A stretch of DNA of 44,119 nt, taken from contig CAJQOL010000118.1 of assembly GCA_905479925.1 (NCBI GenBank), positions 1 to 44,119 of the forward strand, written 5' to 3'. Below the pieces are notes generated by a model. It worked only from the letters and a program-made list of their open reading frames with translations. It was not told where the DNA came from and did no database searches. This document shows, one piece after another, positions 1,353 to 36,860 of the stretch; within the stretch, counting starts at the first letter, position 1; each line of letters starts with the position of its first letter. Both the position numbers and the translations under genes were made by a program. This stretch comes from an uncultured Kangiellaceae bacterium. Its GTDB lineage: Bacteria > Pseudomonadota > Gammaproteobacteria > Enterobacterales > Kangiellaceae.

Positions 1353-1480
1353 TTAATTAATCACTTTGCAGCATTTGTTGCCTTGATACCTAAATTGTTG
1401 CTAACAAATGGGGAATTGTTAACGTCACCAATCGCAATACTCGACTAAAATAATAATTACAATCAATGTGAGCAGTGATA

Positions 1481-4542: not shown

Positions 4543-4558
4543 ATAAAAGTGACATAAA

Positions 4559-4906
4559 ATGGCCTATATAGCTCTGGTAGTTGAAGATGTTGTAATTAAT
4601 AAATGGGAACTGATTGAGGATGTCACCATTCTCGGTCGTGCCAAGGACTGTGATATACAAATCGAAGACCAATCCGTTAGCTCCAAGCATGCCCGTATTG
4701 TTGCCGAAGAAGATGATTATCTTGACGGACATCATGTTATGTTCTTAGAAGATCTAAAAAGTACCAATGGAACCGAGCTTAATGGTGAGAGCATTGAGCG
4801 TGTTAAACTAAATGACGGTGATTGGTTCCGCCTAGGTTTTACCGAATTTCAGTTTGTTGCTAATACAACCCCAAACCTTGATCAAACATCGGTGATTGTT
4901 TCGTAA
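4559..4906 (+). CDS. FHA-domain protein
   Basis: The 115-aa protein is essentially one forkhead-associated domain. The hallmark residues are present: GRAKDCDIQIEDQSVSSKHARI (Gly-Arg, Ser and His of the phosphothreonine pocket) and LKSTNGTELNG (the conserved Asn-Gly). FHA domains bind phosphothreonine peptides, so this is the likely reader of the kinase two genes upstream. It is the third gene of the kinase/phosphatase operon, 16 bp after the PP2C stop. There is no strong ribosome binding site, which fits coupled translation. Confidence 0.93.
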   Translation: MAYIALVVEDVVINKWELIEDVTILGRAKDCDIQIEDQSVSSKHARIVAEEDDYLDGHHVMFLEDLKSTNGTELNGESIERVKLNDGDWFRLGFTEFQFVANTTPNLDQTSVIVS

Positions 4907-9600: not shown

Positions 9601-10923
9601 CTATAACTTAGCAAACGCTTCGCGCGTCATATTCTTAATGCCATCCTTTTTAATAACAATATCATCTTCTATTCTTATACCACCGAACGGCATTAAAGCG
9701 TCTATCTTAGCCCAATTAAATGCTTGCTTGTATTTTCCATCGCGGTGCTTGCTTAATAAGGCGTCAATGAAATACAAACCCGGCTCAATCGTAAAAGCCA
9801 TATTGGTTTCCATTTTTCGGGTACTTCTCAAAAACGGGTGGGCGCTAGGGGGTGGATTACTCTTACCACTGGCATCAGCAAATTGTCCTCCCACATCATG
9901 TACCTGAAGCCCAATCAAGTGGCCTAAGCCATGGGGAAAAAAGGCTCCTGAAATGCCTGACTCAACGGCTTCTTGCGGTTGTAAAGACAAGATATCAAAC
10001 CGATTCAATATTTCAGAAATTTGCAAATGGGCATTGATATGGAGATCGAGGTATTCCTGACCGTTGATAATTGAGTCCATACAATTTAACTGCATCTGCT
10101 CCATTGCATCGATCAATTCAGAAAACTCATTTTTTTCTGCGCTGTAGGTACGTGTAATATCTGAATGATAACCATTAACTGTTACCCCAGCATCAATAAG
10201 GAAGGAACGTGAAAGCTCCGGTACCTTTGCTTCACACTCCATATAATGCAAAATAGCGCAGTTTTGATTTAACGCGATAATATTCCCATAGGGCATTTGA
10301 TGTTCCAACATGCCGGTTGCTTCAACGTAAGCTAAATGGATTTGTTGCTCACTTTTGCCATCCCTAAATGCCAGCTCGGCCACTCGGTGAGCATAGGCCG
10401 CTTTATCATTAGCCTGCTGCATACATTCAATCTCGTAGTCACTCTTATAAGCACGTTGCCAATAAATCGCATTCAACAACTCGCTAGGGTTTTGTTTTGT
10501 TTTGTTTAGTCGGCTTGTGAGCCTGGTTGCTTCTCCAAGTACCGCAACTCGATCACTGTTTTCAGGGAAATAGCGAAGCGCTTGTTCAAACTCGGTAATC
10601 ACCTGAATATCAAAATGCTCTGGCCAATAACCAGACGGGTCCGAAGGTGGTGTATGCCAAAAATCGACCGGTTGATAATAGACCAATACGGGTTTACCGG
10701 TTAAACCGATAATCAAATAACTGTCGGCAACCTCGGTAAGCGGCAAGTAGGTTCGGAATAGAAAGCTAGATTTAAAGGGATAATACATATCATCCAGATA
10801 AATTTTTAGCGGCGCACCCGATGGAATAAGCAAATAATCTAGGTCATTTTCTTGCATTAGCTGACGATGACGCGCCAGTAAGTCACTTAAATGTGCGCCA
10901 TACAATTGGTCAATACTCGACAT
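9601..10923 (-). CDS. pepQ: Xaa-Pro dipeptidase PepQ
   Basis: The 440-aa M24 metallopeptidase hydrolyses dipeptides with C-terminal proline. The dinuclear metal ligands of the pita-bread fold are visible: the two Asp in DAGVTVNGYHSDITRTY, the His in FPHGLGHLIGLQVHD, and the Glu residues in TIEPGLYF and GIRIEDD. An N-terminal creatinase-like domain precedes the catalytic domain. I chose the ATG at 10923 (SD AGGA 7 bp upstream) over an in-frame TTG two codons earlier. It lies 32 bp upstream of the IMPACT gene on the same strand. Confidence 0.93.
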   Translation of the reverse strand: MSSIDQLYGAHLSDLLARHRQLMQENDLDYLLIPSGAPLKIYLDDMYYPFKSSFLFRTYLPLTEVADSYLIIGLTGKPVLVYYQPVDFWHTPPSDPSGYWPEHFDIQVITEFEQALRYFPENSDRVAVLGEATRLTSRLNKTKQNPSELLNAIYWQRAYKSDYEIECMQQANDKAAYAHRVAELAFRDGKSEQQIHLAYVEATGMLEHQMPYGNIIALNQNCAILHYMECEAKVPELSRSFLIDAGVTVNGYHSDITRTYSAEKNEFSELIDAMEQMQLNCMDSIINGQEYLDLHINAHLQISEILNRFDILSLQPQEAVESGISGAFFPHGLGHLIGLQVHDVGGQFADASGKSNPPPSAHPFLRSTRKMETNMAFTIEPGLYFIDALLSKHRDGKYKQAFNWAKIDALMPFGGIRIEDDIVIKKDGIKNMTREAFAKL

Positions 10924-11054
10924 AAACAAATCCTAATAAATGGGGTGTAACCCGATAAACAGCCGGCTCATACTTATTAATCACGCAATATAGCATGAAT
11001 TGGCTAAGCGAAAACACCGCCATAACTGGGAGAAGCAAAGAGTTAGAAAAAGCG

Positions 11055-11892: not shown

Positions 11893-14037
11893 ATGATATA
11901 CGAAGGTCAAACACTTCGCTGTGAAATGCTGGACAACGGCATAGCGGAATTAATTTTTGATAGCAAGACCGGTTCAGTTAATAAGTTTGATAACGAAACA
12001 TTAACCGAGTGGGGTGAAGCGATAAAAGCACTAAATGCTACTGATGGTATTCGTGGTGCAATTGTTACTAGCGCAAAAAGCGTATTTATTGTCGGCGCTG
12101 ATATCACTGAATTTTTGGCGATGTTCAAGGAAACACGCGAACAAATGATTGCTTGGTGTGCCCAAGCCAATACTATTTTTACTGGTTTCGAAGATCTTCC
12201 TTTTCCAACGGTTGTTGCTATTGATGGTTTTGCATTGGGTGGCGGTATGGAAATGGCACTAACCTGTGATTTTAGAATCGCGACGCCCAATTCAAGGGTT
12301 GGATTACCTGAAACACAGCTTGGTTTAATCCCTGGCTTCGGTGGAACGGTTCGTTTGCCACGACTCATTGGAGCGGATAACGCACTCGAATGGATCGCAA
12401 TGGCTAAACCGTACAAACCAGATGCTGCATTAAAAATGGGAGCTCTCGATGCTGTAGTCGCTCCGGAGCAATTAAAAGAAATAGCTATTCAAATGGCCAG
12501 CGACGCCGCAGACGGAAAACTAGACTGGAAAGGTCGACGCACCGTTAAGCAAAGCCCGCTAATGCTAAACAAACTAGAAAGCACCATGGCGTTTAATGTT
12601 GCTAAAGGTGTCATCGGAGCGAAAGCGCTTCCACATTATCCAGCACCGATGGAAGCAATCAGAGTAGTAGAAGAAGGTGCTCGTTTATCACGTGATGAAG
12701 CGCTAAAAATTGAGCATGAAGGTTTTGTAAACGTTTGCCAAACACCACAAGCAAGAGCAATGGTGCAAATTTTCCTGAGTGACCAGTTATTAAAAGGAAA
12801 AGCAAAAAAAGCCGCTAAAACAGCCACCAAAGCAGTTAAACAGGCAGCCGTTCTTGGCGCAGGTATCATGGGCGGCGGCATTGCGTACCAATCTGCTAGC
12901 AAAGGCATTCCGGTGATTATGAAAGATATTAATCAACCGGCACTAGACTTAGGCATGAACGAAGCGATTAAGATTTTAAGCAAAGGCGTTAAGTTGGGTA
13001 AGTTAAAAGCCGACAAAATGGCCAAAGTGGTCGCAACCATTACTCCAACACTTGATTACGCCAGTGTTAAACACGCAGATCTAGTCGTTGAAGCGGTTGT
13101 TGAAAACCCTAAAGTGAAAGACGCAGTATTACAGGAAGTCGAGGGCATTATTGCAGAAGACGCTATCTTGACTTCAAACACCTCAACCATTTCAATCGAT
13201 TTGCTTGCCAGAAACCTCAAACGTCCTGAGCTTTTCTGTGGAATGCATTTCTTTAATCCGGTACACAAAATGCCTTTAGTTGAGGTCATTCGCGGCGAGA
13301 AAACCTCCGATGAAACGATTGCTGCGACGGTTGCTTATGCATCAGCGATGGGTAAATCAGCAGTCGTCGTTAAGGATTGCCCTGGATTTTATGTAAACCG
13401 TGTTTTATTCCCTTATTTCCGTGGGTTTAGCTTACTCATGAATGAAGGAGCGGATTTCCGCCAGATTGATAAAGTCATGACCAAGTTTGGTTGGCCAATG
13501 GGTCCGGCTTACTTGCTGGATGTTGTCGGGATAGATACCGCCCATCATTGTGCAGACGTATTAGCCGAAGGGTTCCCAGAGCGTATGGCGACTATTGATG
13601 GCGATGTCGTTGCTGGCTTATTCCTCCAAGGTAAATTTGGTCAAAAAACTGGAAGCGGATTTTATTCATATAGCGTCGACAAAAAAGGTCGACCTAAGAA
13701 AGACTTTGTTGAAGAAGTCTTCGAAATCATCGGAACACCAAAGAAAGAATACGATACTAATGAAATCATTGAGCGAATGATGCTTCCATTAATATTTGAA
13801 GTGGCACGCTGTCTCGACGAAGGAATTGTGGCCACCGCAGAAGAAGCTGATATGGCTTTATTGTTCGGCATCGGATTCCCTCCATTTAGAGGTGGCGCTT
13901 TGCGTTATGCCGACGAAACTGGACTAGAAAACATTGTCGCAATGGCGGACAAATATCAAGCACTTGGCGTTAGTTATGAAGTACCAGAGCTGATTAAGCA
14001 AATGGTTGCTGATAACAAAACTTTTTATAACGCATAG
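11893..14037 (+). CDS. fadB: Fatty acid oxidation complex subunit alpha FadB
   Basis: The 714-aa multifunctional beta-oxidation enzyme has an N-terminal crotonase domain whose oxyanion and catalytic region contains Glu120 (GGGMEMAL) and Glu140 (LPETQLG). A Rossmann-type 3-hydroxyacyl-CoA dehydrogenase domain starts with LGAGIMGGG at about residue 318. The HAD catalytic His452 lies in [11 protein letters not shown], followed by the C-terminal HAD domains. Length and residue spacing match E. coli FadB. It forms an operon with fadA 33 bp downstream. SD: GGAG before the ATG. Likely controlled by the upstream inverted-repeat operator. Confidence 0.98.
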
Positions 14038-15231
<1,194 letters not shown>

Positions 15232-15393: not shown

Positions 15394-15612
15394 ATGTCTC
15401 AACAATTAACTAATTTTCTATCTCAATTAGCAACCGATAACGACCTTGTTGATGCCTTTAAGAATGATAAAGCGGGAACCATGAAGCAACACGATATCTC
15501 AGACGAGCATATAGACTTAGTCGTCAATAAAAAATATGATGAGATACAGAACATACTTGGTGCCAACTATTCGATCGCCAACAATGACATTATTAAAGCT
15601 TATAAGAACTAG
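15394..15612 (+). CDS. Split-borosin precursor-like protein A1 (SonA/LigA fold)
   Basis: The 72-aa protein is predicted all-helical: MSQQLTNFLSQLATDNDLVDAF, then FKNDKAGTMKQHDISDEHI, then a short C-terminal tail. The pattern F-L-x2-L ... A-F-x-N-D ... M-K ... S-D-E is that of the LigA-like borosin-binding domain in SonA of Shewanella oneidensis (recalled from memory). The tail carries Ile66-Ile67, about where the methylated core residues of SonA lie. The protein aligns without gaps to the protein at 18602 (about 34 identical positions of 72). SD AAAGGAAA precedes the ATG. The stop is 8 bp before the histidine kinase start, so the two are probably translationally coupled. It is likely the methyltransferase substrate, though a purely regulatory small protein is possible. 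Confidence 0.75.
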   Translation: MSQQLTNFLSQLATDNDLVDAFKNDKAGTMKQHDISDEHIDLVVNKKYDEIQNILGANYSIANNDIIKAYKN

Positions 15613-15620
15613 GACAACCA

Positions 15621-17486
15621 ATGTCCGTCGGTAAGGCCAACTATTTTATCCAAATACTTGGCCTACTCTTTGTTTGTATCTCACTATCATCACATGCTGA
15701 GTCGCTGCAGACCTCTTCATTTTTAAATGACAAGGCCTACACCTTTTTTAGGGCTGGAAATTACACAGAATCCTATCAATTATCGCTTGATGCCCAACAA
15801 CAAGCGATCGCTGAAAACAATAATAAGGAACTAGCGCGAGCACTCAGTAATATTGCGTCAAACCTATCATTCCTAGGTAACAATGAAAAAGCCGCTCAAC
15901 TCTATAATCAGTCACTAGCACTTGCAGAAAATGAAAATGATACCCAAGGCATCCTTAGAGCGCTTAATAATATAGCGTCTATCTATCGTCAGGTTGGTAA
16001 CAACAGTGAAGTACTTTTTTACCACCAAAAACAGTATCAAGTGGCAATAAATCTGTCGGAGCCAAAAGAGCAAATACATGCACTTATTGGATTATCTCAA
16101 GCGCATAGGCGTATTGGTGAAATTGAGCAAGCAAAAAAACACCTTCAATCTGCAAGAGAATTGCTTAATAAATCACCCGATGACTTTACCGAAATTTATT
16201 TTAATTTTGCCACGTCGAGTATTTATGAAACGCAGGATAATTGGGAAGGCGCACTAGATTCTCTTGAGAAAGCATTATTTCTAGCTAAGAAAAATAACTT
16301 TGGTGGTCTAATAGCCAGCACTTTGTCAAATATTGCAGTCGTAAAATATGAGCAGCAAGAATATACGTCCGCCGAAAATTTCACTACTAAGTCATTAAAT
16401 TTAGCAATCGAGCTACAGCTTAACGCAAAAATAGTAGAATCCAGACGCCTGCTAGCAAAGATTTATGAAACGAACAAAGACTACAAAAATGCCCTGAATC
16501 AAATCAAGTTACTTGAGGAAATTGAGCTAAAGTTAACTGGTGAAAAAGTAAAAATATTCTCGGAGATCACTCGAATCGATCGACAGATGGCTGAGACGGA
16601 AAAGCAATTAGAACAAAGTAACCAAAGACGAAAGATTGCCGAATTACGTTATGAAAATCAGCAGCGCTCGCAGGTTATTATTGCAGTAGCAGCTGCGTTC
16701 ATTTTAATCAGTGGATTTTTCTGGTTTTATAGACGTGCAAGCCGTTTGCAAATAAGTCGGCAGAAAAAAGTTAATCAAGAACTGCTAGAGCTTGACCAAC
16801 TAAAAGATAGAATTCTCACCAACACATCCCATGAACTTCGCACCCCACTAAACGGCATTATCGGTTTAGCCGATGTTATACTTATGACTAGCGAAGATGA
16901 GCTATCGGAATCAACCAAAGAACAAATTAAATTAATCGGCAATAGTGGCAAACAACTCTCTGAGATCGTCGATGATATATTAGATTTAGCGCAACTTAGA
17001 ACCCGTAAAATGACATTCCATTTTAGTCGTTTCGATATCAACTTGCTGATAGAGGAAGTTATTCAGCTTTGCCAGACCACTCAGAATAAATCAGTAGCGA
17101 TCGAATTTTTCAAGTCCGATATACCGCTAATGATAAATCAGGACAAGAAAAGAACACGACAGATTTTATTCAACTTAATCGGTAACGCAACTAAGTTTAC
17201 TCAGAAGGGTTCTATTAGTATTAACTGCTCCTTGGATGACCAATTTGTATTGTTTTCCGTTCAAGATTCTGGAATTGGTATTCCAGAAAACAAACTAGAA
17301 CGAATTTTTGAAGGCTTTGAACAGGTGGATAGCAAAGACAGCCGACAATTCGGAGGCTCCGGCCTAGGGTTAGCTATCTGCCGTGAAATAGCGACGGCAT
17401 TAGGTGGAAACATTATAGTCGAGTCGGAGATTAACATCGGCACCACAATGACGGTATACTTACCGGCAGTAAAACAAACCTCCTAG
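15621..17486 (+). CDS. TPR sensor histidine kinase, copy 1
   Basis: The 621-aa protein has a signal peptide (cleavage near SSHA-ES, about residue 27). An extracytoplasmic array of tetratricopeptide repeats spans about 33-310, followed by a short coiled coil (about 312-345) and one TM helix (about 350-371). The HisKA domain has phosphoacceptor His404 in NTSHELRTPLNGIIGL. The HATPase has NLIGNATKFT (N box), DSGIGIP and GGSGLGLAI (G boxes). There is no receiver or output domain and no response regulator gene nearby. The SD overlaps the stop of the preceding precursor-like gene. It is a close paralogue of the kinase at 18866. The TPR array suggests it senses a peptide or protein in the periplasm; the linked small protein is the obvious candidate. 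Confidence 0.92.
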   Translation: MSVGKANYFIQILGLLFVCISLSSHAESLQTSSFLNDKAYTFFRAGNYTESYQLSLDAQQQAIAENNNKELARALSNIASNLSFLGNNEKAAQLYNQSLALAENENDTQGILRALNNIASIYRQVGNNSEVLFYHQKQYQVAINLSEPKEQIHALIGLSQAHRRIGEIEQAKKHLQSARELLNKSPDDFTEIYFNFATSSIYETQDNWEGALDSLEKALFLAKKNNFGGLIASTLSNIAVVKYEQQEYTSAENFTTKSLNLAIELQLNAKIVESRRLLAKIYETNKDYKNALNQIKLLEEIELKLTGEKVKIFSEITRIDRQMAETEKQLEQSNQRRKIAELRYENQQRSQVIIAVAAAFILISGFFWFYRRASRLQISRQKKVNQELLELDQLKDRILTNTSHELRTPLNGIIGLADVILMTSEDELSESTKEQIKLIGNSGKQLSEIVDDILDLAQLRTRKMTFHFSRFDINLLIEEVIQLCQTTQNKSVAIEFFKSDIPLMINQDKKRTRQILFNLIGNATKFTQKGSISINCSLDDQFVLFSVQDSGIGIPENKLERIFEGFEQVDSKDSRQFGGSGLGLAICREIATALGGNIIVESEINIGTTMTVYLPAVKQTS

Positions 17487-17537
17487 AATTAGTCTTTTGT
17501 AACCAGATAAAATGATTAAGCTTGGTATTAGTCTGAT

Positions 17538-17607
17538 ACTGCTGGTCTCGTACTGCTGGTCTCGTACTAAAGATCCCGTACTACGGCTCCAGAACTGCTA
17601 GTCTCGT
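17538..17607. repeat. 14-bp tandem repeat array, about 5 units
   Basis: Five contiguous 14-bp units: ACTGCTGGTCTCGT twice exactly, then ACTAAAGATCCCGT, ACTACGGCTCCAGA and ACTGCTAGTCTCGT. Degenerate half-related units may flank on both sides (17524 and 17608). The array fills most of the 197-bp gap between histidine kinase 1 and the methyltransferase. It is noncoding, and the period is not a multiple of three. Confidence 0.8.
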
Positions 17608-17683
17608 ATCGCTAGCGCGATGCGACTAGAGCAATGACTGATTCGTCAAATAACCACTATGAAATATCGAAGAAGGAAGAATT

Positions 17684-18496
17684 ATGAATAATGAGGGAAC
17701 GCTGACGGTGGTCGGAACCGGTATTTTAACCCCAGCACACCTTTCACAAGAATCCATTGCGAGTATTAAACATGCTGATGTTGTGCATGTTCTTGTCCCT
17801 GATCCACTAGGCCTTTCAACCATAAAACAACTTAATCAAAACATTAAGAACCTGGCAGATCTTTATTTCGACAGCGAGAGTGAACGCAATGGCAAAAATC
17901 GCCTCGAAGCCTATGACAAAATGGTCGCTGTAATTTTAGAAGATGTTCGAAGTCATCAAAAAGTTTGTGCTATTTTCTACGGGCACCCCGGCGTATTCGT
18001 CTATCCGTCCCATGTTAGTATTAAAAAAGCAAAGCAAGAAGGTTTTGATGCCCAAATGCTGCCGGCGATATCCGCCGAAGACTGTCTGTTCGCAGATCTC
18101 GCTGTAGACCCAGGCGATTTAGGGTGCCAGGCTTATGAAGCGAGTCAGCTAATTTTTTACCAGCACACCCCGAACATCCACGCAGCACTAATACTCTGGC
18201 AAATAGGCGTCGTTGGCGACGAAACCCTTACTCAATTAAAACCGTCTAAACATGGACTAGCCATGTTAAGAGAACGTTTACTGAATTGGTACCCGGCAGA
18301 TCACGAGGTAACGCTCTATGAGGCCAGCACTCTTCCCATAATGCCTCCGAGGATAGAGCAAGTAACTATTGATCAACTGGTAAACGCAGAAGTAAAAACA
18401 ATAACGACACTTTATGTACCACCATTAGAAACACCTCGTCTGGATGTTGAATTTTGTAAAAAGTGGTCTGTTGATATGGATATGCTGACTAATTGA
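17684..18496 (+). CDS. Split-borosin peptide alpha-N-methyltransferase (SonM-like)
   Basis: The 270-aa protein has the tetrapyrrole-methylase fold used by borosin enzymes (OphMA, SonM). It shows an N-terminal VVGTGI SAM loop (9-14), the GHPGVF motif (100-105) followed by SHVSIKKAKQEGF, and ISAEDCLFADLAVDPG (129-144). The WQIGVVG segment, NWYPADHEVTLYEA (201-214) and APRIE-like PPRIEQV come next. Residues expected near the active site, Tyr61 and the R73-x3-Y77-x2-M set, are present. As I recall SonM, the match runs nearly end to end, including length. SAM-dependent methylation of backbone amides in a separately encoded precursor is the family function. A strong SD (AAGGAAG) lies 5 nt before the ATG. 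It lies between two precursor-like genes. Confidence 0.88.
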   Translation: MNNEGTLTVVGTGILTPAHLSQESIASIKHADVVHVLVPDPLGLSTIKQLNQNIKNLADLYFDSESERNGKNRLEAYDKMVAVILEDVRSHQKVCAIFYGHPGVFVYPSHVSIKKAKQEGFDAQMLPAISAEDCLFADLAVDPGDLGCQAYEASQLIFYQHTPNIHAALILWQIGVVGDETLTQLKPSKHGLAMLRERLLNWYPADHEVTLYEASTLPIMPPRIEQVTIDQLVNAEVKTITTLYVPPLETPRLDVEFCKKWSVDMDMLTN

Positions 18497-18527
18497 CAAC
18501 CAAATTTCTAACGATCTAGCCAACAAC

Positions 18528-18556
18528 TTGTTTTTTATAAGATAAGACGTTATAAC
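18528..18556 (+). promoter_or_regulatory. Sigma70-like promoter of precursor/kinase module 2
   Basis: TTGTTT (18528-18533) and TATAAC (18551-18556) have a 17-bp spacer. It lies about 46 bp upstream of the second precursor-like gene, after the methyltransferase stop. It mirrors the promoter in front of module 1. Confidence 0.55.
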
Positions 18557-18601
18557 TAGCTTGCATTACCAATAAATACAACAACTAGAATGGAGTTCTA
18601 T

Positions 18602-18826
18602 ATGTCCCAAAAACTGACTGAATTTTTAACTGAAATTACAACTAATAAAAATCTACGCGAAGCTTTTTCCAACGATCGCGCCGCGACTATGAAAAAGTAT
18701 GGTGTTTCAGACGAAGATGCGGCGTTAGTTATTAACCATGACTACGAAGCTGTTTTGAAAAAGCTTGGCCCCGGCTACGACATCGCTAAAAATACCATTA
18801 TTGATGCGTTTAAAATCAAGAAATAG
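18602..18826 (+). CDS. Split-borosin precursor-like protein A2 (SonA/LigA fold)
   Basis: This 74-aa protein aligns without gaps to A1: MSQKLTEFLTEITTNKNLREAF, then FSNDRAATMKKYGVSDED, then a tail with Ile66-Ile67 and a basic end KIKK. I place the start at the second ATG (18602), because GGAG sits 6 bp before it and overlaps the in-frame upstream ATG at 18590; the shorter form also aligns with A1 from its first residue. It lies 105 bp after the methyltransferase and 39 bp before histidine kinase 2. The shared helical body is presumably the methyltransferase docking domain and the last dozen residues the candidate core. No protease or export gene is apparent, so processing is unclear. Confidence 0.75.
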   Translation: MSQKLTEFLTEITTNKNLREAFSNDRAATMKKYGVSDEDAALVINHDYEAVLKKLGPGYDIAKNTIIDAFKIKK

Positions 18827-18865
18827 TCGCGTTAATTAGTATCAACAGGGAAAGGGGCAGCGTAT

Positions 18866-20728
18866 ATGCATAAGAAAATAGTTATTTTCTGGCTTATCGC
18901 TTTGTTTTTTTTACGCATAAATGCCCCTCTTTTTGCTGAAGAAACAATAGAAAACGCCGAGCTACATAACCAGCTCGCTTATTCCGCGCTAAAAAACGGC
19001 GACTATAAACAAGCATTCATCGAGGGAAAGACTGCCGAATCCCTCGCTTTAAAAGAGAAAAACACCATTGAACTTGCTCGCGCAATCTCCAATATTGCCT
19101 CAACCCATCTCTATTTTGGTGAATATGATAAAGCCCTTGGGATGTACCTTGAGTCATTAGATATTTCAAAAAAAGACAACAATTTAGATGGTATTGAGCG
19201 AGCCCTCAATAATATCTCAGCAATATATACGCGTATTGATAGAAGCGAAGAAGCGCTTCAGTATTTGCTAAAATTACCGGTGGTCAATGGTATAGAGCGT
19301 TCTTCACACGACCAATTAGTGGGATACATCAGCCTTGCTTCTAGATATAGAGAAGTCGGCAATATCGAACAAGCCGAGAAATACATCGGTCTCGCAGAGG
19401 CGGTAGCCAAATCCCACCCCGAACCTTTTCTCGAAGTGTATTTGTTTTTAGAGTTAGCCAAACTGAAAAAAGAGAATAACATCATTTCGGATTCGGTCAG
19501 TTATCTAAAAAAAGCCCTTGCACTAACCAAACGAGAAAACTTCGATGAATTACGTGTTGTCATTCTCAGAAATTTAGCGGAACTTCACTTTCATTTTAAT
19601 GATCTTCAACAGGCAAAACTATATGCCTTGCAAGCCTTAGATTTTTCGACTGAACTTGGTTTACCCACCGAACAGGAAATGACCTACGTCAACCTAATAC
19701 TTATAGAAAGAAAGTTAGGGAATTACAAAAAAGCACTTAGTTACGTGGATTTAAATAAGCAACTAACTGAACGTATAAAAAGTGCCAAAATTCAGCAGTT
19801 AGCCGAGATAACTAAAGTTGATAGAAATATGGCCGAAACTGAAGAAAAACTAAGACAAAGTATTCAGCAACGTGAAATTGCTGAACTAAAGTACGAGCGG
19901 CACAAACAGCTTCAGATAAACACCACGATTCTTTTCTTGATAGTAATCGCGCTTATATCATTCTGGTTTTACCGCAGAAATTCTCGAATGGCTTTACAGC
20001 GACAAATCGATAAAAATGCACAGCTCCAAGAACTCGATCATTTAAAAGACCGTATTCTTACCAATACTTCTCACGAATTACGAACACCACTTAACGGGAT
20101 CATTGGTTTATCCGAAGCTATTTTGATTGATGCCAATGGTACACTCGACGAAGATACTAAAAGCTACGTTAGATTGATTGGTAAAAGCGGTTCGCAACTA
20201 TCCGAGATTATCAATGACATTTTAGACCTTGCTCAATTGCGGGCTAACAAAATGGTATTTAACAATACAACCTTCAAGGTAAATACCCTAGTAACCGATG
20301 TAGTGACTCTTTGCCAGCCATTGTTAGGTGATAGAGATATTCGAATAAAACTAGCGCCGCTCGAACCGGATGTAGAAGTTTGTCTTGATGAAAAAAGAGT
20401 TAGACAAATTTTATTTAATATTGTTGGAAATGCCATTAAATTCACTAAAAAGGGATTCGTAAAAGTCTCCATCGAACACAATAAAAATTGGCTTCAATTA
20501 ACGGTTGAAGATACTGGCATCGGCATCCCCAAAGATAAAATAGAGCGGATTTTTGAAGGGTTTGAACAAGTTAACCAAAGTGATACTCGAGAGCAGGGCG
20601 GTTCAGGCTTAGGACTGGCCATATGCAATCAACTATTATCGGCTTTAGGCGGAACCATAGCTGTTAGCTCCGAGCTAAACAAAGGCACTACAATGGTTAT
20701 AAAATTACCGACCGAACCCGCTGGTTAA
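18866..20728 (+). CDS. TPR sensor histidine kinase, copy 2
   Basis: The 620-aa paralogue of the kinase at 15621 has the same layout: signal peptide (about 1-24), TPR array (about 30-310), and a coiled coil with the conserved DRNMAETEEKLRQS segment. One TM helix (about 350-370) is followed by HisKA with His403 in NTSHELRTPLNGIIGL. The HATPase has NIVGNAIKFT, DTGIGIP and GGSGLGLAI. It has no receiver domain. The kinase halves are much more alike than the TPR halves, suggesting diverged input specificity and shared output. It ends 5 bp from the convergent nitroreductase gene. Confidence 0.92.
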   Translation: MHKKIVIFWLIALFFLRINAPLFAEETIENAELHNQLAYSALKNGDYKQAFIEGKTAESLALKEKNTIELARAISNIASTHLYFGEYDKALGMYLESLDISKKDNNLDGIERALNNISAIYTRIDRSEEALQYLLKLPVVNGIERSSHDQLVGYISLASRYREVGNIEQAEKYIGLAEAVAKSHPEPFLEVYLFLELAKLKKENNIISDSVSYLKKALALTKRENFDELRVVILRNLAELHFHFNDLQQAKLYALQALDFSTELGLPTEQEMTYVNLILIERKLGNYKKALSYVDLNKQLTERIKSAKIQQLAEITKVDRNMAETEEKLRQSIQQREIAELKYERHKQLQINTTILFLIVIALISFWFYRRNSRMALQRQIDKNAQLQELDHLKDRILTNTSHELRTPLNGIIGLSEAILIDANGTLDEDTKSYVRLIGKSGSQLSEIINDILDLAQLRANKMVFNNTTFKVNTLVTDVVTLCQPLLGDRDIRIKLAPLEPDVEVCLDEKRVRQILFNIVGNAIKFTKKGFVKVSIEHNKNWLQLTVEDTGIGIPKDKIERIFEGFEQVNQSDTREQGGSGLGLAICNQLLSALGGTIAVSSELNKGTTMVIKLPTEPAG

Positions 20729-21435: not shown

Positions 21436-23826
21436 TTATTGTAATAATGACTCATCTAACGCTATCTCTTTCAATCCCTGCTCAAAAACCGCCAAGAAAC
21501 GTTCAACATTTTCTTGATTAAAGACAATGGGAGGCTTAATTTTTAGAATGTTATAATAAGGCCCTTCAGAGGTCAGTAAAATTTGGTTTCTCTTGAAATG
21601 CTCAATTAACCAATCCATCGCCTTTGACGCAGGTATTTTTGTATCACGATCAGTAACCAGCTCAACACCAATAAAAAGTCCTAACCCTCTGATATCACCA
21701 ATTAGAGAATAACGTTTCTTTAACACACGCAAACCATCTTGCATCAGTACACCCATTTCCAGAGCATTTTTTTGCAGCGACTCTTTTTCAATCACCGATA
21801 GCACAGCTTCACCGATAGCGCAGGATACGGGGTTTCCACCAAAGGTGTTAAAGTACTCCATGCCGTTAGCAAACGAATCGGCAATTTCCTTTGTCGTAAT
21901 CACCGCCGCCAAAGGATGTCCATTACCAATCGGTTTACCCAAAGTAACAATGTCAGGAATAACCCCTTGGGTCTCAAACGCCCACATATGCGTTCCAACT
22001 CTTCCGAAACCCACTTGCACTTCGTCAGCGATACATAAACCGCCAGCCTCTCTAACGCGACGATAAGCGGCTTTTAGGTAGCCGTCCGGCATTATTATCT
22101 GTCCCGCGACACCTTGTAATGACTCACAAATAAAAGCGCCTACTTCTTCACCTTGCTGTTTAATTTCTAAAAGAGCTCGGTCAATATCCTTAGCGTAGGC
22201 TTCTCCAACCGATGCAGCGTAACCGGTAAATTCGCCGCGATAGGGATCAGGCAAACTCACGGGGTGAATATGAGACTGCCGACCGGTACCACCGGGTCCG
22301 TTAAATTTATACGGACTTGCCGCAACGCAGGCCGCAGTATTACCATGGTAAGCTTGGTCAACCACGATCAGTTGTTTTGACTTGGTAAAATTATTGGCTA
22401 AGCGAAAAGCCAATTCATTGGCTTCACTACCCGAGTTAACTAAAAGACAAACCGACAACTGTTTTGGAAAAGTTGCTAATAGTTTCTCACTAAAATTGAT
22501 GATGTTGTCATGAAGATAACGGGTATTAGTATTTAACAAAGCCATTTGAGCTTGTCCCGCCGCAACCACGTCAACATGGCAATGGCCCACATGACAAACA
22601 TTATTGACCATATCTAGATATGGAGTACCTTGTTCATCATATAAGAAAGCACCTTGACCTCTAACAATTTTTAAAGGCTTTTGATAACTTAAGCTTAATG
22701 AACGCACCAAATGGCTCTTCCTGAAAGCCAATAACTCTTGATTGTTTCTAGTCCGTGAATGCGCTCTTTTGTTTGTTAATGATTCGCTAGTTTTGGCTTC
22801 TATTAAAGTCTCATCTATCTGTGATAAACGATTTTCGAGGCTTTGAATATTTACTTTCTGTAATTGTTTTAGTGCATCTATTGCCGGTAACGTAGAAATT
22901 ACCAAGTACTCGTTGTCTGGCTCTTTCTTAATGGCCTCAGCAGCATTACATAAGGTGGTACAAAGCCTTAATGCGATTAAATAATACAAGCTTTGTACTT
23001 CTGCTAACTTCAGTGGTCTGTGTTGATGATAACCTTTCACCATATTTATGATAACGTTAGCAGGGTCACTTTGTTTCATAATTGCATAGGCACAGCTAAT
23101 AGCCAGCTCATTGATCGTATGGGTATACACCATATCGCCAAAATCAATTAAACCGACAATCTTGTTTGGCTTTTTCTCGTTATCCACCAAAAGATTATAG
23201 TCATTGGCGTCGCTATGAATAATGCTTTCCGGCAATTTGTCCAATAACGGCAGCACGTTCAATTTGTAACGCTTGAGAAAATGATCAACCAACTGCAAAT
23301 GCTGCGGATTAAGTTGGCTCTTTTTCATTTGGCAAACCGAAAAGCCGTTAGCCAAATCCCACTCAAGAAAACGGTAAGCACCTGCATGTTTAAACTCAGC
23401 CATTGTGGCATTAACCTGCCCCAAAATACTTCCAAGATGTTGCCACAAAGGTTCACTAGTTTGAGTTATCTGAGACTCGGCATAAATAACACCCTTAAGA
23501 AAACTAATCACTCTAAAGAAATGGCGTTGCCCATCCCCGTCGATTTCATTTACACGCTTGCCATTTCTATCACGCAAGACTTTAGGGACAGCGACACCTT
23601 GTTTAGATAAAAAAGACATGGCTTCATTTTGCATGGTTATATTAGAAGCTGAATCATTCGAAGCGGCTACTTTTACAACCCACTGATTATTATCACTATC
23701 AGTTAAACAATAGTTAATATCGCTATAACTGGGCAAAGCTGTTAACTCACCGCTAAGGTGATAATAATTGGCTAAGTGCTCAAGAATTTGAGCCTTAGAA
23801 ATATTTGGACGATTAGAATTTGACAC
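21436..23826 (-). CDS. Fused APH-like kinase and class III aminotransferase-fold PLP enzyme
   Basis: The product is about 796 aa. The N-terminal third is an aminoglycoside-phosphotransferase/choline-kinase-type domain with catalytic HSDANDYN (about 204) and the metal-binding GLIDFGDM. The C-terminal part (about 365-796) is a class III aminotransferase fold: SGSEANELAFRLAN, DEVQVGFGRVG and the PLP lysine (about 631) in TLGKPIGNG. This pairing matches hydroxylysine or ethanolamine kinases with their phospho-lyase (AGXT2L-type) partners. A likely role is phosphorylating an amino-alcohol and then eliminating phosphate, but the substrate is not determinable. I prefer a GTG start at 23826, with GAGAGAG about 7 bp upstream; a TTG lies two codons earlier. 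Confidence 0.85.
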   Translation of the reverse strand: MSNSNRPNISKAQILEHLANYYHLSGELTALPSYSDINYCLTDSDNNQWVVKVAASNDSASNITMQNEAMSFLSKQGVAVPKVLRDRNGKRVNEIDGDGQRHFFRVISFLKGVIYAESQITQTSEPLWQHLGSILGQVNATMAEFKHAGAYRFLEWDLANGFSVCQMKKSQLNPQHLQLVDHFLKRYKLNVLPLLDKLPESIIHSDANDYNLLVDNEKKPNKIVGLIDFGDMVYTHTINELAISCAYAIMKQSDPANVIINMVKGYHQHRPLKLAEVQSLYYLIALRLCTTLCNAAEAIKKEPDNEYLVISTLPAIDALKQLQKVNIQSLENRLSQIDETLIEAKTSESLTNKRAHSRTRNNQELLAFRKSHLVRSLSLSYQKPLKIVRGQGAFLYDEQGTPYLDMVNNVCHVGHCHVDVVAAGQAQMALLNTNTRYLHDNIINFSEKLLATFPKQLSVCLLVNSGSEANELAFRLANNFTKSKQLIVVDQAYHGNTAACVAASPYKFNGPGGTGRQSHIHPVSLPDPYRGEFTGYAASVGEAYAKDIDRALLEIKQQGEEVGAFICESLQGVAGQIIMPDGYLKAAYRRVREAGGLCIADEVQVGFGRVGTHMWAFETQGVIPDIVTLGKPIGNGHPLAAVITTKEIADSFANGMEYFNTFGGNPVSCAIGEAVLSVIEKESLQKNALEMGVLMQDGLRVLKKRYSLIGDIRGLGLFIGVELVTDRDTKIPASKAMDWLIEHFKRNQILLTSEGPYYNILKIKPPIVFNQENVERFLAVFEQGLKEIALDESLLQ

Positions 23827-23996
23827 CCACAACTCTCTCTAACAAATGCTCTATCGATGTTTTCTCTTCAAAAGAGTGGTTTCTTATTTTTTCTTATTTT
23901 TCTTTCTAACTACTTGTTACTTGCTCTTTCTTACTGATCACTAATTACTGATTGCTAATTAGCCAATATCTGACGTCTAATTGCTAATATTTAACA

Positions 23997-24086: not shown

Positions 24087-24569
24087 CTACAGCTCATCAT
24101 CAAAATCGCTTTCATCAGCTTCAACTTCAAACAAACTGTCCGCTTCATCATCATAGTTAAAGGCACCAACAAGCGTCACGTAGTCATCTTTCTCCACACC
24201 TGAAAGCTTTGAAGAATATTCGTATTCAAATAAAAGGATAACCCAACTTACCTTCAATAAGTTTTTCTTGGTCGCTTTGCTCATTAACGGCTCTATAAAA
24301 GATTTTGAAAAGGAACATTCACCAATAGCCTGTTTAATGTCGACTAAACCTTCATGAGATCCGTTGGTTTCCATTGCTTCAGGGTCAAAATATCTCATTT
24401 TAAAATTATCCGACCAACTATTTCTAGCGCGAGTATTGTTCTTACTGAATGTTTCTTCAAAATACTCATCGGGTATTTCTGCATAAGGCACTTGCGAGGC
24501 CCAGACAGAGACTTTATACTTTTTATTAAATAGAAATCCTTTTGAGGTATTAATTGAAGGCTTTTTCAT
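24087..24569 (-). CDS. Acidic protein of unknown function downstream of RIO kinase
   Basis: I do not recognise this family. The 160-aa cytoplasmic protein has no signal or TM segment. A basic N-terminus (MKKPSINTSKGFLFNKKYK) is followed by a mixed domain, and the C-terminus is strongly acidic (DDEADSLFEVEADESDFDDEL). I chose the ATG at 24569; another at 24578 is possible, while the longest frame would overlap the kinase gene by 26 bp. It follows the RIO kinase by about 22 bp on the same strand, suggesting co-transcription. The acidic tail could be a phosphorylation target or an interaction surface; this is speculation. Confidence 0.6.
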   Translation of the reverse strand: MKKPSINTSKGFLFNKKYKVSVWASQVPYAEIPDEYFEETFSKNNTRARNSWSDNFKMRYFDPEAMETNGSHEGLVDIKQAIGECSFSKSFIEPLMSKATKKNLLKVSWVILLFEYEYSSKLSGVEKDDYVTLVGAFNYDDEADSLFEVEADESDFDDEL

Positions 24570-24591
24570 TAGGTGCATTACTCGTATTCGT

Positions 24592-25461
24592 CTAGGCGCC
24601 GTCTTGCTGAGGTTCATTAGCTAGTCGTTTGCGTTCTTGTCTAGCTTGCTCTTCTTCAAAAGCCGCTTTAATTTCTAACAGGATATCATCAACGTCCGCG
24701 GTATGTTCACTTTCTTTATACTGGCCGGTCAACTCAAAGCTACTCGAAAGCTCTGCATTTTCATACAATTCCCAGATTTCCTTAGCATACTGACTGTTTG
24801 ATAGCTGAGGTGCAAATTGAGCGTAATAGTTAGTCATGTTTTCAACATCTCTTTCGAGCATGCGCTTAGCGTTGTTATTACCCGATGCATCAACCGCTTG
24901 CGGCAAGTCGATAATCACTGGCCCATATTCGTCTAGCAGTACATTAAACTCCGATAAGTCACCATGAACAACACCCGCGCCGAGCATTTTTGCGACGTTA
25001 TGCATAATCACCGCGTGATCCTCAAGTGCTTGCTCTTCGGTCAAATGAACATCGTTAAGACGCGGTGCAACATCGCCGTCGCCATCCGTCACTAACTCCA
25101 TCAATAATACGCCATCAAAGCAACCAAACGGTTGCGGAACCCTAACACCGGCGTCAGCAAGACGATAAAGAGCATCTACCTCTGCATTTTGCCAAGCTTC
25201 TTCTTGTTGTTTACGCCCAAAACTGGACTTTTTATCCATAGCCCTATTTCGACGACTATTTCGACCCCGTCGGCCTTCTTGGTATTCAACCGCCTTTTTA
25301 AAACTGCGTTTCGCCGCTTCTTTATAGACCTTCGCGCAGCGCACATCGCTGCCGCACCTTACAACATAGACTGTCGCTTCTTTTCCACTCATCAATTGGC
25401 TCAAGACTTCATCGACAATTCCGTCTTCGTAGAGTGGTTTAATTCGTTTTGGCATTTTCAT
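24592..25461 (-). CDS. RIO1-like serine protein kinase (PA4780 family)
   Basis: The 289-aa atypical protein kinase has a RIO-type nucleotide loop SGKEATVYVV, the catalytic loop VVHGDLSEFNVLL (Asp and Asn) and the metal-binding VIIDLPQAVD. These are hallmarks of the RIO1 family in proteobacteria (PA4780 type). A C-terminal Glu/Arg-rich helix follows. The ATG has AAGG 6 bp upstream. Its bacterial targets are not established. It is divergent from the acyl-CoA synthetase gene. Confidence 0.93.
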   Translation of the reverse strand: MKMPKRIKPLYEDGIVDEVLSQLMSGKEATVYVVRCGSDVRCAKVYKEAAKRSFKKAVEYQEGRRGRNSRRNRAMDKKSSFGRKQQEEAWQNAEVDALYRLADAGVRVPQPFGCFDGVLLMELVTDGDGDVAPRLNDVHLTEEQALEDHAVIMHNVAKMLGAGVVHGDLSEFNVLLDEYGPVIIDLPQAVDASGNNNAKRMLERDVENMTNYYAQFAPQLSNSQYAKEIWELYENAELSSSFELTGQYKESEHTADVDDILLEIKAAFEEEQARQERKRLANEPQQDGA

Positions 25462-29253: not shown

Positions 29254-32200
29254 ATGTCACAACATATTTTTCGTAAAAAACTTAGCATAGTATCGTTAAC
29301 TTCTCTGTGGGTAGTTGTCTCTTGTTTCCTTTCACTGTCATTGCATGCGCAACATAGTCATGAATTAGACACCATAAAGTTCAATTCACTTTCCCAGCAA
29401 AATGGTCTTTCACTCAATAGCGTTAATGCCGTGATTCAAGATAGCAGAGGCTTTCTTTGGATCGCAACGGAAAACGGACTAAACCGTTTTGATGGTTATG
29501 AATTTGTAGTGTATGAACATATCCCTTTTGATAAAACCAGCTTATCCCACAATGAAGTAGTGACTTTACTCGAAGATGACAACGGATTTATCTGGTTAGG
29601 CACGGAAGGTGGTGGGCTTAATCGTTTTGACCCGACAGCTGGAACTTTTATTCATTATACGAATCAATATAATCAGGAAATCAATTGGGATGCATTAAGT
29701 GATGAGGATGAAATTCCACTTGATGATATTTCTTCATCAGCTGAGTATACGGTTAATGGCCTTGAAACAGATAGAATAAGCCATAATGTCATTCATTCGT
29801 TAGCGCAAGATAAAGAAGGTCACCTTTGGATTGGTACTGAAGGTGGCGGTCTGAACAGGCTAAACCAGCAAACAGGCTTGTTTACCCATTATACCGCGGT
29901 TGGTAATAATAATTCTCTTTGTGATAATGAAATTAAAGCCTTAGTGATCGATCAGCAACGAATTATATGGGCAGGTACTGAAAGTGGCTTAGCCCGTTAT
30001 GACCCCCAAACAGATCAGTTTACTTGCTATAAGCACCATAACGAGCAGCCAACCAGTTTGAGCCATAATGAAATATCGACCCTAGTACTTGATAATAATA
30101 ATAACCTTTGGGTGGGCACTGAAGAAGGCGGCTTAAACTTTTTCAATCGACAAAGCGATACCTTCACACGCTATATGCATGATAAAACCGTAGCTGGCAG
30201 CATCAGCAGTAATGCTATAGAAAGTTTGCTTTTTGATCACAACAATCAGCTTTGGGTGGCAACAGAAAACGGTTTAAACCTATTTAATGCGCATAGCCAG
30301 ACATTTTATCACTTTCATTACCAAGCGAGTGCCAAGGCCACATTAAGCAGTAACAAGTTATCGACGTTATGGCTAGACAATGCTAACAACCTTTGGATAG
30401 GAACTAAAAACGCAGGCCTTAATTATGTTGATTTAAAGCCTCGAAAGTTTCCATCAAGCTCACAAAGCCCAACAGAGGAGCACTCATGGTCTGGCTATAC
30501 CGTCAATGCGGTCTATCAAGATCATTTGAATCATTTGTGGGTAGGTACCGAAACTGAAGGGTTATTCGAACAGCAATCTGATGGGGTTATTCATCATTAC
30601 AACACGTCAAATAATAACTCAGGTTTAGGAAATAATGATATTACTGCGATTGCTGAGGATGGCAACAACACACTCTGGTTGGGGACTGATGATGGCGGGC
30701 TTTATAAATTTAATCGTAAGGGACATAACTTTGAGTCGATAGCATTGACGGGGGATAAGCATGCAATTACTGCTATGCATTTAGGCAAGTCTCAGCAACT
30801 ATGGGTCAGCATTGGAATTGGCGTTTTGATTACGATTTCAGCTAATGAAAGCTCTATTCAATATCATGCCTTATCAATGACTCATCCCGATGGCACCGTA
30901 TTAGGTGATATCACAAGCATTGTTGAATTGGCTGATCGCTCTCTCTGGTTGGCGACGAAAGATGCAGGGCTGATTCATTATAACCCTCAAACAGGTAGAA
31001 CTTCAGCCATTCAACATAATCTTAACAATCCTAATTCATTAAGCACTAATATGGTGAGTGCTGTGGTGGCAATTAAAGAGTCTGACCTTTGGATTGGAAC
31101 ACATCAAGGCCTCAATCACTATAACCTTGATACGGGACTATTTACGCTATATTTAAAAGAGCACGGTTTACCTTCAAATTTTATTTCGAATGTTGTTATT
31201 GATAATGATGAAAATCTATGGTTGACAACAAATCGTGGGATTACACGTTTCGCGCCTAACGCTTTAACATTCAGTAATTTCGATCGGGATGACGGCTTAC
31301 TCAATGATTATTTTACTGCAGGTGCTAGTTTCATCAATAAACAAGGAAAATTACTTTTTGGCGGCAGCAAAGGTGTTGATTCTTTTCATCCTGAAACGGT
31401 AGTTGGAAATCCATTTCCACCTAAAATACAAGTTACAGAGTTTCAATTGATGAATAAGCCAGTCACGCCTTTGCATAGTGATGTACTAACTCAAGCAATT
31501 GGCGCGACTGATGCGATAGCCCTAAATTATCGACAAAGTATGTTTGCGTTTGAGTTTAGTGCCTTAGACTTTACTATTGCCAAGAAAAACCAATATGCCT
31601 ATCGACTGGTAGGATTTGATAAAGCATGGCAATTTGTTGGGCCACGACGTTATGCTTCTTATACTAATATCCCACCAGGAAAATACCGCTTTGAAGTCAA
31701 AGGCACAAATAATGACGGACTCTGGACGACTAAACCTGTTGCTATTAATATTGAACAACATGCCGCGCCTTGGCAAACATGGTGGGCTAAGCTTGTGTAT
31801 CTTTTAGCAGCATTAAGTTTACTGGCATTACTGGTTTTCTTGCGCTTTCGCCATGAAAGAAATCAATTAATAGTGGAACAAAAGAAAGAAGAAGCCCGAT
31901 TTTTAAAAGAGTGTTTTGACAAAGAGCAACGTTTTACCGCTGATGTGGCTCATGAATTACGCACTCCTATTGCCGAGTTGCGCACTATGGCAGAGGTTGC
32001 GCTAAAATGGCCAGGTGATCCAGCACAAGCCTTACCATTCTATCAAGATACCTTAGATGCCACTTTACAAATGCAGCAAATGGTTAATAATCTACTTGCT
32101 TTAGTTCGGGCTGACTTGGGGATTGCTTCGATACACTTATCTGCCGTAGATATAAATGATGAGTTACAACGCTGTTGGCACAACTATAGTGAACAAGCCA

Positions 32201-32598: not shown

Positions 32599-32628
32599 TC
32601 TGAATCGTATATAGGAATAGTTTAGTTT

Positions 32629-36230: not shown

Positions 36231-36860
36231 CAGGGTGGCAAGCAGGGCAAGATCATTATAAATTGAACTAATTGTAAAATCATTGATCAGATCTTCTAAT
36301 TAACTAGGAGATCTTAAAAATGAGTGATTTTATAAGCCATTTCAGTAGCATTCCCGCGCCAAGAATAGAACGATGTCGCAAACATGAGCTATTAGATATA
36401 CTATTTTTGTCAATTAGCGCCATTCTTTGCGGTGCTGATGGTTGGGAAGAGATAGAAGATTTTGGTCGCGCAAAACGGGATTGGTTATGTCGTTATTTTC
36501 CATATACAGAAGGTATTCCCAAGCATGACACCATCGCTAGAGTCCTCAGTCGCTTAGATCCAGAAGCCTTACAAAAGAGCTTTATCTCATGGGTTAACGC
36601 GGCTAGCGAGTTAACCAACGGAGAAGTGATCGCGATAGATGGAAAGACCGTTAGACGCTCATTTCAAAAAGGAAATAGGAAGAGCGCTATTCATATGGTG
36701 AGTGCTTGGGCTTGCCAGAATAATCTTGTTTTAGGACAACAAAAAGTTGATGCCAAGAGTAATGAAATCACGGCTATTCCGGCTTTACTCGATTTGCTTG
36801 ATATTAAAGGTTGTATCATTACCATTGATGCCATGGGCTGCCAAACAGGCATCAAAAAAG
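36231..36860 (+). mobile_element. ISAs1-family insertion sequence remnant (right part deleted)
   Basis: The left part of an ISAs1-type element. A possible terminal repeat starts CAGGGTGGCAAG at 36231, about 90 bp before the transposase, where ISAs1 ends commonly begin CAGGG. The element stops abruptly inside the transposase at about 36855-36860, where an unrelated esterase-like reading frame begins. No right end is visible. The left boundary is an inference. Confidence 0.6.

What the first reader, a model, noticed from the sequence alone, without database searches (positions are those of the whole stretch)
15394..20728. Split borosin-type locus wired to two TPR sensor kinases
A SonM-like peptide backbone N-methyltransferase is flanked on each side by a module of a SonA-like small protein followed by a TPR sensor histidine kinase. 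RiPP precursors normally sit with maturation, protease and export genes. Here the only partners are two sensor kinases, one per precursor. This suggests N-methylated peptides, or their carrier proteins, act as ligands or modulators in signal transduction. Seen directly: the gene order, the paralogy and the spacing. Family assignment of the methyltransferase is from remembered SonM features. The signalling role is inference. I do not know whether this exact arrangement has been described.
Basis: partly seen in the sequence, partly recalled or inferred. Interest (0 to 1): 0.93.

Follow-up and report, generated by a model that had tools for sequence, protein, structure and literature searches.

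The report
Methylated-peptide cassette driving two sensor kinases
One gene for an enzyme of the family that methylates peptide backbones lies between two pairs of a small substrate-like protein and a membrane sensor kinase; in many bacteria such enzyme-substrate pairs sit beside membrane sensor proteins, which likely means that the modified peptides are read as signals.

Summary
Window 17684-18496 encodes a SonM-family (type IV split borosin) backbone N-methyltransferase with every checked catalytic and lock residue. It is flanked by two paralogous units, each a 72-74 aa SonA-like precursor followed by a sensor kinase with a predicted periplasmic TPR domain. The pairing is not a local accident. 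In 137 distinct methyltransferase loci from relatives, 109 have a neighbour within four genes matching TPR-sensor profiles; away from the methyltransferase, 12 of 505 long ORFs do. The output domain varies: GGDEF (71), histidine kinase (22), none recognised (16). Shewanella sp. ANA-3, of the founding SonM genus, has methyltransferase, precursor and TPR-GGDEF in a row. In 99 genomes (own included), 13 of 14 strong matches to the HK-type TPR domain sit beside a borosin methyltransferase. Most likely the methylated tail, freed or still on its carrier, is read by the TPR domain of the neighbouring sensor. That step is inference: the locus has no exporter, peptidase or response regulator, and the precursors show no secretion signal. 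New here are the doubled precursor-kinase layout around one enzyme and the exchangeable-output pattern. A GGDEF label already appears in a published borosin figure legend, and key subscription papers could not be read.

The parts
15394..15612 (+). precursor A (72 aa): SonA-like borosin-binding domain plus C-terminal tail; predicted methyl sites I67 and A69 by alignment with SonA L63/I65 (uncertain)
   Evidence: (LigA weak, 16.9 bits); AGGA sequence before the ATG
15621..17486 (+). TPR sensor kinase 1 (621 aa): signal-peptide-like N-terminus, TPR domain, membrane segment about 352-370, HisKA with H404, HATPase_c; no receiver domain
17684..18496 (+). SonM-family peptide backbone N-methyltransferase (270 aa); Y61, R73, Y77 match SonM catalytic Y58, R67, Y71; F105 and W172 match lock residues F99 and W166
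   Evidence: residue roles from PMC8429565
18602..18826 (+). precursor B (74 aa; a longer reading starts at 18590): SonA-like five-helix domain plus tail; predicted methyl sites I67 and A69 (uncertain)
   Evidence: (LigA 31.7 bits, on the 78 aa reading)
18866..20728 (+). TPR sensor kinase 2 (620 aa): same architecture, H403

Best explanation
This is a split-borosin signalling cassette in which one SonM-family methyltransferase is predicted to N-methylate the tails of two flanking SonA-like precursors, and each methylated tail would then likely be read by the TPR domain of the sensor kinase encoded just after it. Shown: gene order, family membership by sequence and active-site residues, a precursor model resembling SonA, kinases with intact H-boxes, and a recurring linkage of methyltransferase, precursor and TPR protein whose output is a histidine kinase, a GGDEF domain or nothing recognised. 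Inferred: methylation of both tails; release of the peptide or use of the whole carrier protein; contact with the TPR domain; change of kinase activity. Because the TPR domain is predicted periplasmic and no exporter is encoded at the locus, the likeliest route is a freed N-methylated peptide that crosses the membrane by itself or by a general transporter. TPR domains as peptide receptors have a precedent in the Rap proteins. The two units would give one enzyme two signalling channels.
For: Methyltransferase: SonM is the best PDB match (4.7e-66); catalytic and lock residues are invariant in 20 aligned sequences. Precursors: SonA 7e-9 from a Shewanella-free profile; five helices then a tail; top Foldseek hits are SonA, TM by target up to 0.89, though at E 0.04 or weaker. 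Linkage: in 137 distinct loci the first long same-strand gene downstream is GGDEF in 65 and HK in 22, a further 7 have one only upstream, while 40 of 667 other long ORFs are HK/GGDEF. 109 of 137 have a TPR-profile neighbour against 12 of 505 elsewhere. 14 strong places for the HK-type TPR domain in 99 genomes, 13 beside a methyltransferase. Precursor-sensor gap median 9 bp, at most 60 bp in 77 of 81 loci. TPR parts of HK and GGDEF partners align over 313 columns, probability 99.5%. 91 of 94 HK/GGDEF partners have both an N-terminal hydrophobic stretch and an inner membrane-like segment. In the own genome 35 places (itself included) match kinase 1, and besides itself only kinase 2 does so at 40% identity over nearly the full length. 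The TPR model resembles peptide-binding TPRs, including Rap with its peptide (4gyo, TM 0.59). L074 adds a response regulator and a CheX-like gene after the hybrid kinase.
Against: The precursors show no signal-peptide-like stretch (hydropathy only), and the five-gene locus encodes no exporter, peptidase or response regulator; a PepQ-type dipeptidase lies 4.5 kb upstream on the other strand. No pepsin-like peptidase is found in the own genome or in 4 same-genus genomes. 27 of 137 loci have no recognised TPR or sensor neighbour, and 16 have a TPR protein without a recognised output domain, which does not fit a pure kinase readout; in six Kangiella-like loci such proteins also lack a clear membrane segment. 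Precursor A groups with the precursor of G004 (93/86), but kinase 1 does not group with the G004 kinase, which pairs with that of G003 (98/95), so precursor and kinase did not plainly travel as fixed pairs. Mantel results are mixed: in HK loci the methyltransferase tracks the TPR part better (0.82 against 0.47), in GGDEF loci the reverse (0.64 against 0.74). TPR-to-TPR matching is easy, and no unrelated TPR control was run. The doubled precursor-kinase layout was seen only in the window. Methylation and binding are untested.
Confidence: 0.5

Rival explanations
1. The methylated precursor is a cytoplasmic regulatory protein: the five-helix domain with its modified tail binds the cytoplasmic side of the sensor (linker, kinase or cyclase part) and tunes it, while the TPR domain senses something else in the periplasm.
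For: The window's precursors show no export signal; HK-type loci lack the pepsin-like peptidase and the acetyltransferase (0 and 0 of 23, against 13 and 34 of 71 GGDEF loci), so the precursor may stay whole; precursor and sensor genes nearly touch.
Against: The shared part among partners is the TPR/membrane region, with outputs swapped or not recognised; a cytoplasmic binder should follow the output domain more closely.
Confidence: 0.25
2. Ordinary regulated natural-product cluster: the kinases sense a condition (or the product itself) and control expression of a borosin that acts outside the cell, as in autoregulated lantibiotic systems.
For: Sensor kinases beside RiPP genes are common in general (recalled); L074 carries a response regulator.
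Against: No response regulator, exporter or immunity gene in the five-gene locus; most relatives with a sensor carry a GGDEF protein, and some an output-less TPR protein, instead.
Confidence: 0.15
3. The small proteins and methyltransferase belong to borosin chemistry, but the neighbouring TPR sensors are inherited hitch-hikers with an independent role.
For: 27 of 137 loci lack any recognised sensor neighbour.
Against: 13 of 14 strong HK-type TPR places lie beside a methyltransferase; a sensor after methyltransferase and precursor is seen in Kangiellaceae, Shewanella, Rheinheimera, Luteimonas, Lysobacteraceae and Paraglaciecola records, with near-zero precursor-sensor gaps; 12 of 505 background ORFs match.
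Confidence: 0.08

Closest known systems
Type IV split borosin SonM/SonA of Shewanella oneidensis (PMC8429565; PDB 7ltc and others)
   Same: Separate SonM-family methyltransferase with the same catalytic and lock residues; about 70-75 aa precursor with a five-helix binding domain and short tail; in Shewanella sp. ANA-3 (L124) methyltransferase, precursor and a TPR-GGDEF protein follow each other
   Different: Window has two precursors around one enzyme, each with its own TPR histidine kinase; Shewanella ANA-3 has one precursor and a TPR-GGDEF protein; tail sequence differs; methylation untested. The S. oneidensis MR-1 locus itself was not looked at
Borosin architecture with a GGDEF label in Figure 1 of PMC11395268
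   Same: A GGDEF domain is already drawn in a borosin scheme
   Different: Only the figure legend and passages were seen; no kinase-type partner and no signalling role was found in them
Shewasin (pepsin-like peptidase of Shewanella, PMC4814920; a borosin precursor as substrate of shewasin A is recalled, that paper is not held)
   Same: A pepsin-like peptidase gene lies near some GGDEF-type relatives (13 of 71)
   Different: None near any of 23 HK-type loci, none found in the window's genome
RRNPP/Rap-type TPR peptide receptors
   Same: TPR domain as candidate peptide receptor; model matches Rap bound to its peptide (4gyo, TM 0.59)
   Different: Here a membrane sensor with predicted periplasmic TPR and kinase output, in a Gram-negative bacterium; a work-alike at most

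Membership tests
Type IV split borosin | Stand-alone alpha-N-methyltransferase homologous to SonM/OphMA | tested here: met
   SonM 4.7e-66, OphMA about 2e-47; 270 aa ORF, against 263 aa for SonM and 417 aa for the fused OphMA (lengths from PMC8429565)
Type IV split borosin | Catalytic residues Y58, R67, Y71 and locks F99/W166 of SonM | tested here: met
   Y61, R73, Y77, F105, W172, invariant in 20 sequences
Type IV split borosin | Adjacent separate precursor of about 75 aa with five-helix borosin-binding domain | tested here: met
   Profile hit to SonA 7e-9 without Shewanella rows; model with five helices; Foldseek top hits SonA, best E 0.04, none at 0.001
Type IV split borosin | Core tail that is iteratively backbone-methylated | not testable with these tools
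   Needs MS/MS; alignment suggests I67 and A69
Tetrapyrrole (cobalamin/siroheme) methylase | Match above curated cut-off of a tetrapyrrole methylase equivalog | tested here: not met
   Best NCBIfam 40.1 bits against 525 (YabN), CobI/CbiL 25.4 against 163; only the broad Pfam superfamily PF00590 is met; the profile of 20 relatives reaches a precorrin-2 methylase at 3.1e-9 against 3.9e-112 for SonM
Two-component sensor kinase | HisKA with phospho-acceptor H and HATPase_c | tested here: met
   Both kinases
Two-component sensor kinase | Cognate response regulator encoded next to it | tested here: not met
   None adjacent; the one regulator found among the window ORFs scanned is 32629-33300, beside another kinase
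RRNPP peptide receptor | TPR domain that binds a short peptide | tested here: inconclusive
   Fold resemblance only
RRNPP peptide receptor | Cytoplasmic location (feature recalled) | tested here: not met
   Hydropathy suggests a signal peptide plus an inner membrane segment; no topology predictor was run

The most novel reading that the evidence does not exclude
Split borosins of this clade are not secreted natural products but built-in ligands of a modular signalling receptor: a SonM/SonA pair makes an N-methylated peptide that a periplasmic TPR domain reads, and evolution plugs in kinase, hybrid kinase or c-di-GMP output at will; this genome runs two such channels from one enzyme.
Probability: 0.4. 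Interest if true: 0.92.

Novelty: new variant of a known kind. Interest (0 to 1): 0.74.

Why it matters
PMC8429565 (2021) states that none of the split borosin pathways was then tied to a final natural product. A conserved, output-independent link to TPR membrane sensors gives a concrete function to test and would make backbone N-methylation a signalling modification in bacteria. The window's doubled layout is a natural experiment: one enzyme, two precursors, two receptors whose TPR parts differ more (32% identical) than their kinase parts (53%).

Tried and rejected
Cobalamin/siroheme methylase: rejected. LigAB dioxygenase subunit for the small proteins (Pfam name LigA; LigAB is also among the Foldseek hits): rejected as function because SonA itself carries that label in the PDB and the gene context is borosin. 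Chance adjacency: rejected. Strict co-inheritance of precursor A with kinase 1: not supported by the trees. Mantel comparison of TPR against output part: mixed, not used as support. First genome-contig scan with a single protein found nothing; repeated with an alignment. Promoter scan found fewer than expected (9 against 15.6) and terminator scan 8 against 4.7; neither used. Paper searches: 'borosin' with 'histidine kinase' and N-methylat/backbone/RiPP/histidine kinase each gave one review, whose passages do not make the link; 'borosin' with 'GGDEF' gave only PMC11395268; searches listed nothing on it. Imani 2022 is not held; Cho 2022 and the recalled shewasin-borosin paper are not among the 30 of 32 'borosin' papers listed and were not read, so absence from print is not established. 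Counts are lower bounds: my gene picker did not count the kinases of L082 and L083 that one search shows.
Full report
What is in the window. Five + strand genes run from 15394 to 20728: precursor A (72 aa), kinase 1 (621 aa), methyltransferase (270 aa), precursor B (74 aa from 18602; 78 aa from 18590), kinase 2 (620 aa). Upstream are the two fatty-acid oxidation genes (11893-14037 hydratase/dehydrogenase, 14056-15231 thiolase), downstream a nitroreductase on the other strand. The genome (94.83% complete) shows one such methyltransferase. The family is inferred to be Kangiellaceae, because one same-family contig of 49,311 bases (G017) has the same length and match as the named Kangiellaceae record behind L091.

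The enzyme. Pfam gives the broad PF00590, and tetrapyrrole equivalogs score far under their cut-offs. In the PDB, SonM is first (4.7e-66), followed by the fungal OphMA group (about 2e-47). PMC8429565 (passages and sections 6 and 16 seen) gives catalytic residues Y58, R67, Y71 and locks F99, W166; these match Y61, R73, Y77, F105 and W172, invariant in 20 aligned sequences.

The precursors. Precursor B passes the Pfam LigA cut-off and precursor A does not; SonA carries the same LigA label in the PDB. A single-sequence search with B finds SonA only weakly (0.016). A profile of 8 precursors (the window's two and six family relatives) without Shewanella rows finds it at 7e-9; with Shewanella rows 3.5e-19, which is partly circular. 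The predicted model of B (mean pLDDT 81.5) has five helices and a tail drawn as a hairpin. Of its 54 Foldseek hits none reaches E 0.001; the top ones are SonA chains (best E 0.037, TM by target up to 0.89), with LigAB at rank 6. Both tails share N-x-I-I-x-A-[YF]-K. By alignment the SonA sites L63/I65 fall on I67/A69; this is a prediction.

The kinases. Both have TPR repeats, HisKA, HATPase_c and no receiver; H404 and H403 sit in intact H-boxes. Hydropathy gives an N-terminal hydrophobic stretch and a membrane segment starting near 351-352, so the TPR domain is predicted periplasmic; no topology predictor was run. The TPR model of kinase 1 (mean pLDDT 88.2) matches solved TPR domains, several in complex with peptides, including Rap with its signalling peptide (4gyo, rank 29). 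Of 35 places in the own genome that match kinase 1 at 1e-10 or better (itself included), only kinase 2 matches at 40% over nearly the whole length; one other (27%, with one stop) covers 58-610.

The neighbourhood test. I took 60 stretches around hits, not all of its hits (54 of 99 genomes, the own one included, have the enzyme), and 79 named loci (the best kept from 571 confirmed candidates of a capped list). They hold 145 methyltransferase ORFs, 137 distinct (65 from the first set, 72 from the second); the window itself is not counted. A precursor-like ORF lies within two genes in 118 of 137; its profile was grown from small ORFs near the enzyme, so this count is partly circular. The first long (300 aa or more) same-strand gene downstream is GGDEF in 65 and HK in 22; 7 more have one only upstream. 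Of 667 other long ORFs in the same loci, 40 are HK or GGDEF. With TPR profiles built from 9 HK and 9 GGDEF partners, 109 of 137 loci have a match within four genes (71 GGDEF, 22 HK, 16 without recognised output), 27 have none, and 1 has an HK without TPR; background 12 of 505. 16 of the 137 loci supplied profile rows. Conversely, the HK-type TPR profile at 1e-30 finds 14 places in 13 of 99 genomes, 13 of the places beside the enzyme (in larger genomes only the 19 best candidates were scored). The exception, in same-genus genome G001, sits by a DDE transposase near a contig end, and no enzyme is found in that genome. Another same-genus genome (G002) has enzyme, precursor and GGDEF. L072 is the only locus of the 137 with an HK or GGDEF gene on both sides, but its upstream one is a 1415 aa protein and no precursor was seen beside it.

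Named examples. Shewanella sp. ANA-3 (L124) has enzyme, SonA-like precursor and a 594 aa TPR-GGDEF protein. Pleionea loci (L094, L096, same contigs as L038, L039) end in a TPR protein with a membrane segment but no recognised output. Paraglaciecola (L155) and Aliiglaciecola (L167) have kinases of 1087 and 1059 aa. L074 continues with a response regulator and a CheX-like gene. An Acidobacteria record (L139) has an unrelated beta-propeller kinase upstream. Some loci from other phyla or classes lack a sensor, for example L142, L147, L158 and L159.

Tightness and history. In 81 loci with the order enzyme, precursor, sensor, the precursor-sensor gap has a median of 9 bp and is at most 60 bp in 77. 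HK and GGDEF partners' TPR parts align over 313 columns at 99.5% probability, without an unrelated TPR control. Trees of enzyme and kinase largely recover the same broad groups, with L085 placed differently; within the Kangiellaceae group many forks are open, and precursor A and kinase 1 do not place with the same relative. Mantel correlations are all positive with 0 of 2000 permutations reaching them, but shared ancestry is not removed and the TPR-against-output comparison is mixed.

Processing genes. Within three genes of the enzyme a GNAT acetyltransferase (34 of 71) and a pepsin-like peptidase (13 of 71) occur at GGDEF-type loci, 10 and 5 of 43 at loci with neither output, and 0 and 0 of 23 at HK-type loci. 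The peptidase family was not found in the own genome or 4 same-genus genomes, but was found in 10 of 17 genomes searched. The window has a PepQ-type dipeptidase at 9601-10929 (-), 4.5 kb upstream; I take it as housekeeping. A paper that I recall, not held, reports a borosin precursor as substrate of shewasin A; shewasin D is mainly cytoplasmic (PMC4814920, abstract and passages).

Mechanism. The constant elements are the enzyme, the precursor and a TPR protein, nearly always with a membrane segment when an output domain is present; the output changes. This fits best a module in which the TPR domain meets the modified tail and passes the event inward. Steps shown: genes, families, linkage. Steps inferred: methylation, release, crossing, binding, kinase control. 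The rivals are a cytoplasmic role of the whole precursor, ordinary regulation of a secreted product, and hitch-hiking.

Novelty. In the held library 'borosin' with 'histidine kinase' gave one review without the link and 'borosin' with 'GGDEF' gave only PMC11395268 (legend seen). PMC8429565 has no GGDEF or TPR in its main text, and its one 'kinase' is a cloning enzyme. The decisive subscription papers were not read. I file this as a new variant of split borosins: the kinase-type partner and the doubled unit around one enzyme.

Noticed in passing
window 24087-24617 (-): DUF4284 / Immunity protein 22 family gene next to a RIO1-type kinase (24592-25461); possible polymorphic-toxin immunity gene.
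   Followed up: no
window 1475-4906 (+): Serine/threonine protein kinase (772 aa) overlapping by 4 bases a PP2C phosphatase, followed by an FHA-domain gene.
   Followed up: no
window 21436-23832 (-): Fusion of an APH-type kinase domain with a class III aminotransferase, 798 aa.
   Followed up: no
window 29254-33300 (+): Beta-propeller (Reg_prop) sensor kinase of 1114 aa followed by a response regulator with a Trans_reg_C domain.
   Followed up: no
window 36320-37829 (+): Transposase-like ORF (DDE_Tnp_1-associated, 187 aa) overlapping a 360 aa ORF without Pfam match: likely an insertion-sequence remnant.
   Followed up: no
window 17537-17568: 14-bp tandem repeat (2.3 perfect copies) in the gap between kinase 1 and the methyltransferase.
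   Followed up: no
L181 7995-10901: Same-genus genome G001 keeps a TPR kinase of this family but has a DDE transposase right upstream near the contig end, and no methyltransferase was found in that genome.
   Followed up: partly
L074 7744-13085: Borosin methyltransferase and precursor followed by hybrid TPR kinase, lone receiver protein and CheX-like protein: a whole relay in one run of genes.
   Followed up: partly
L158 6541-8403: Caldilineaceae borosin-type methyltransferase followed by a LodA-like lysine oxidase gene.
   Followed up: no
L071 7362-8831: 489 aa ORF overlapping the methyltransferase ORF on the same strand, with a weak LigA-like stretch inside.
   Followed up: no
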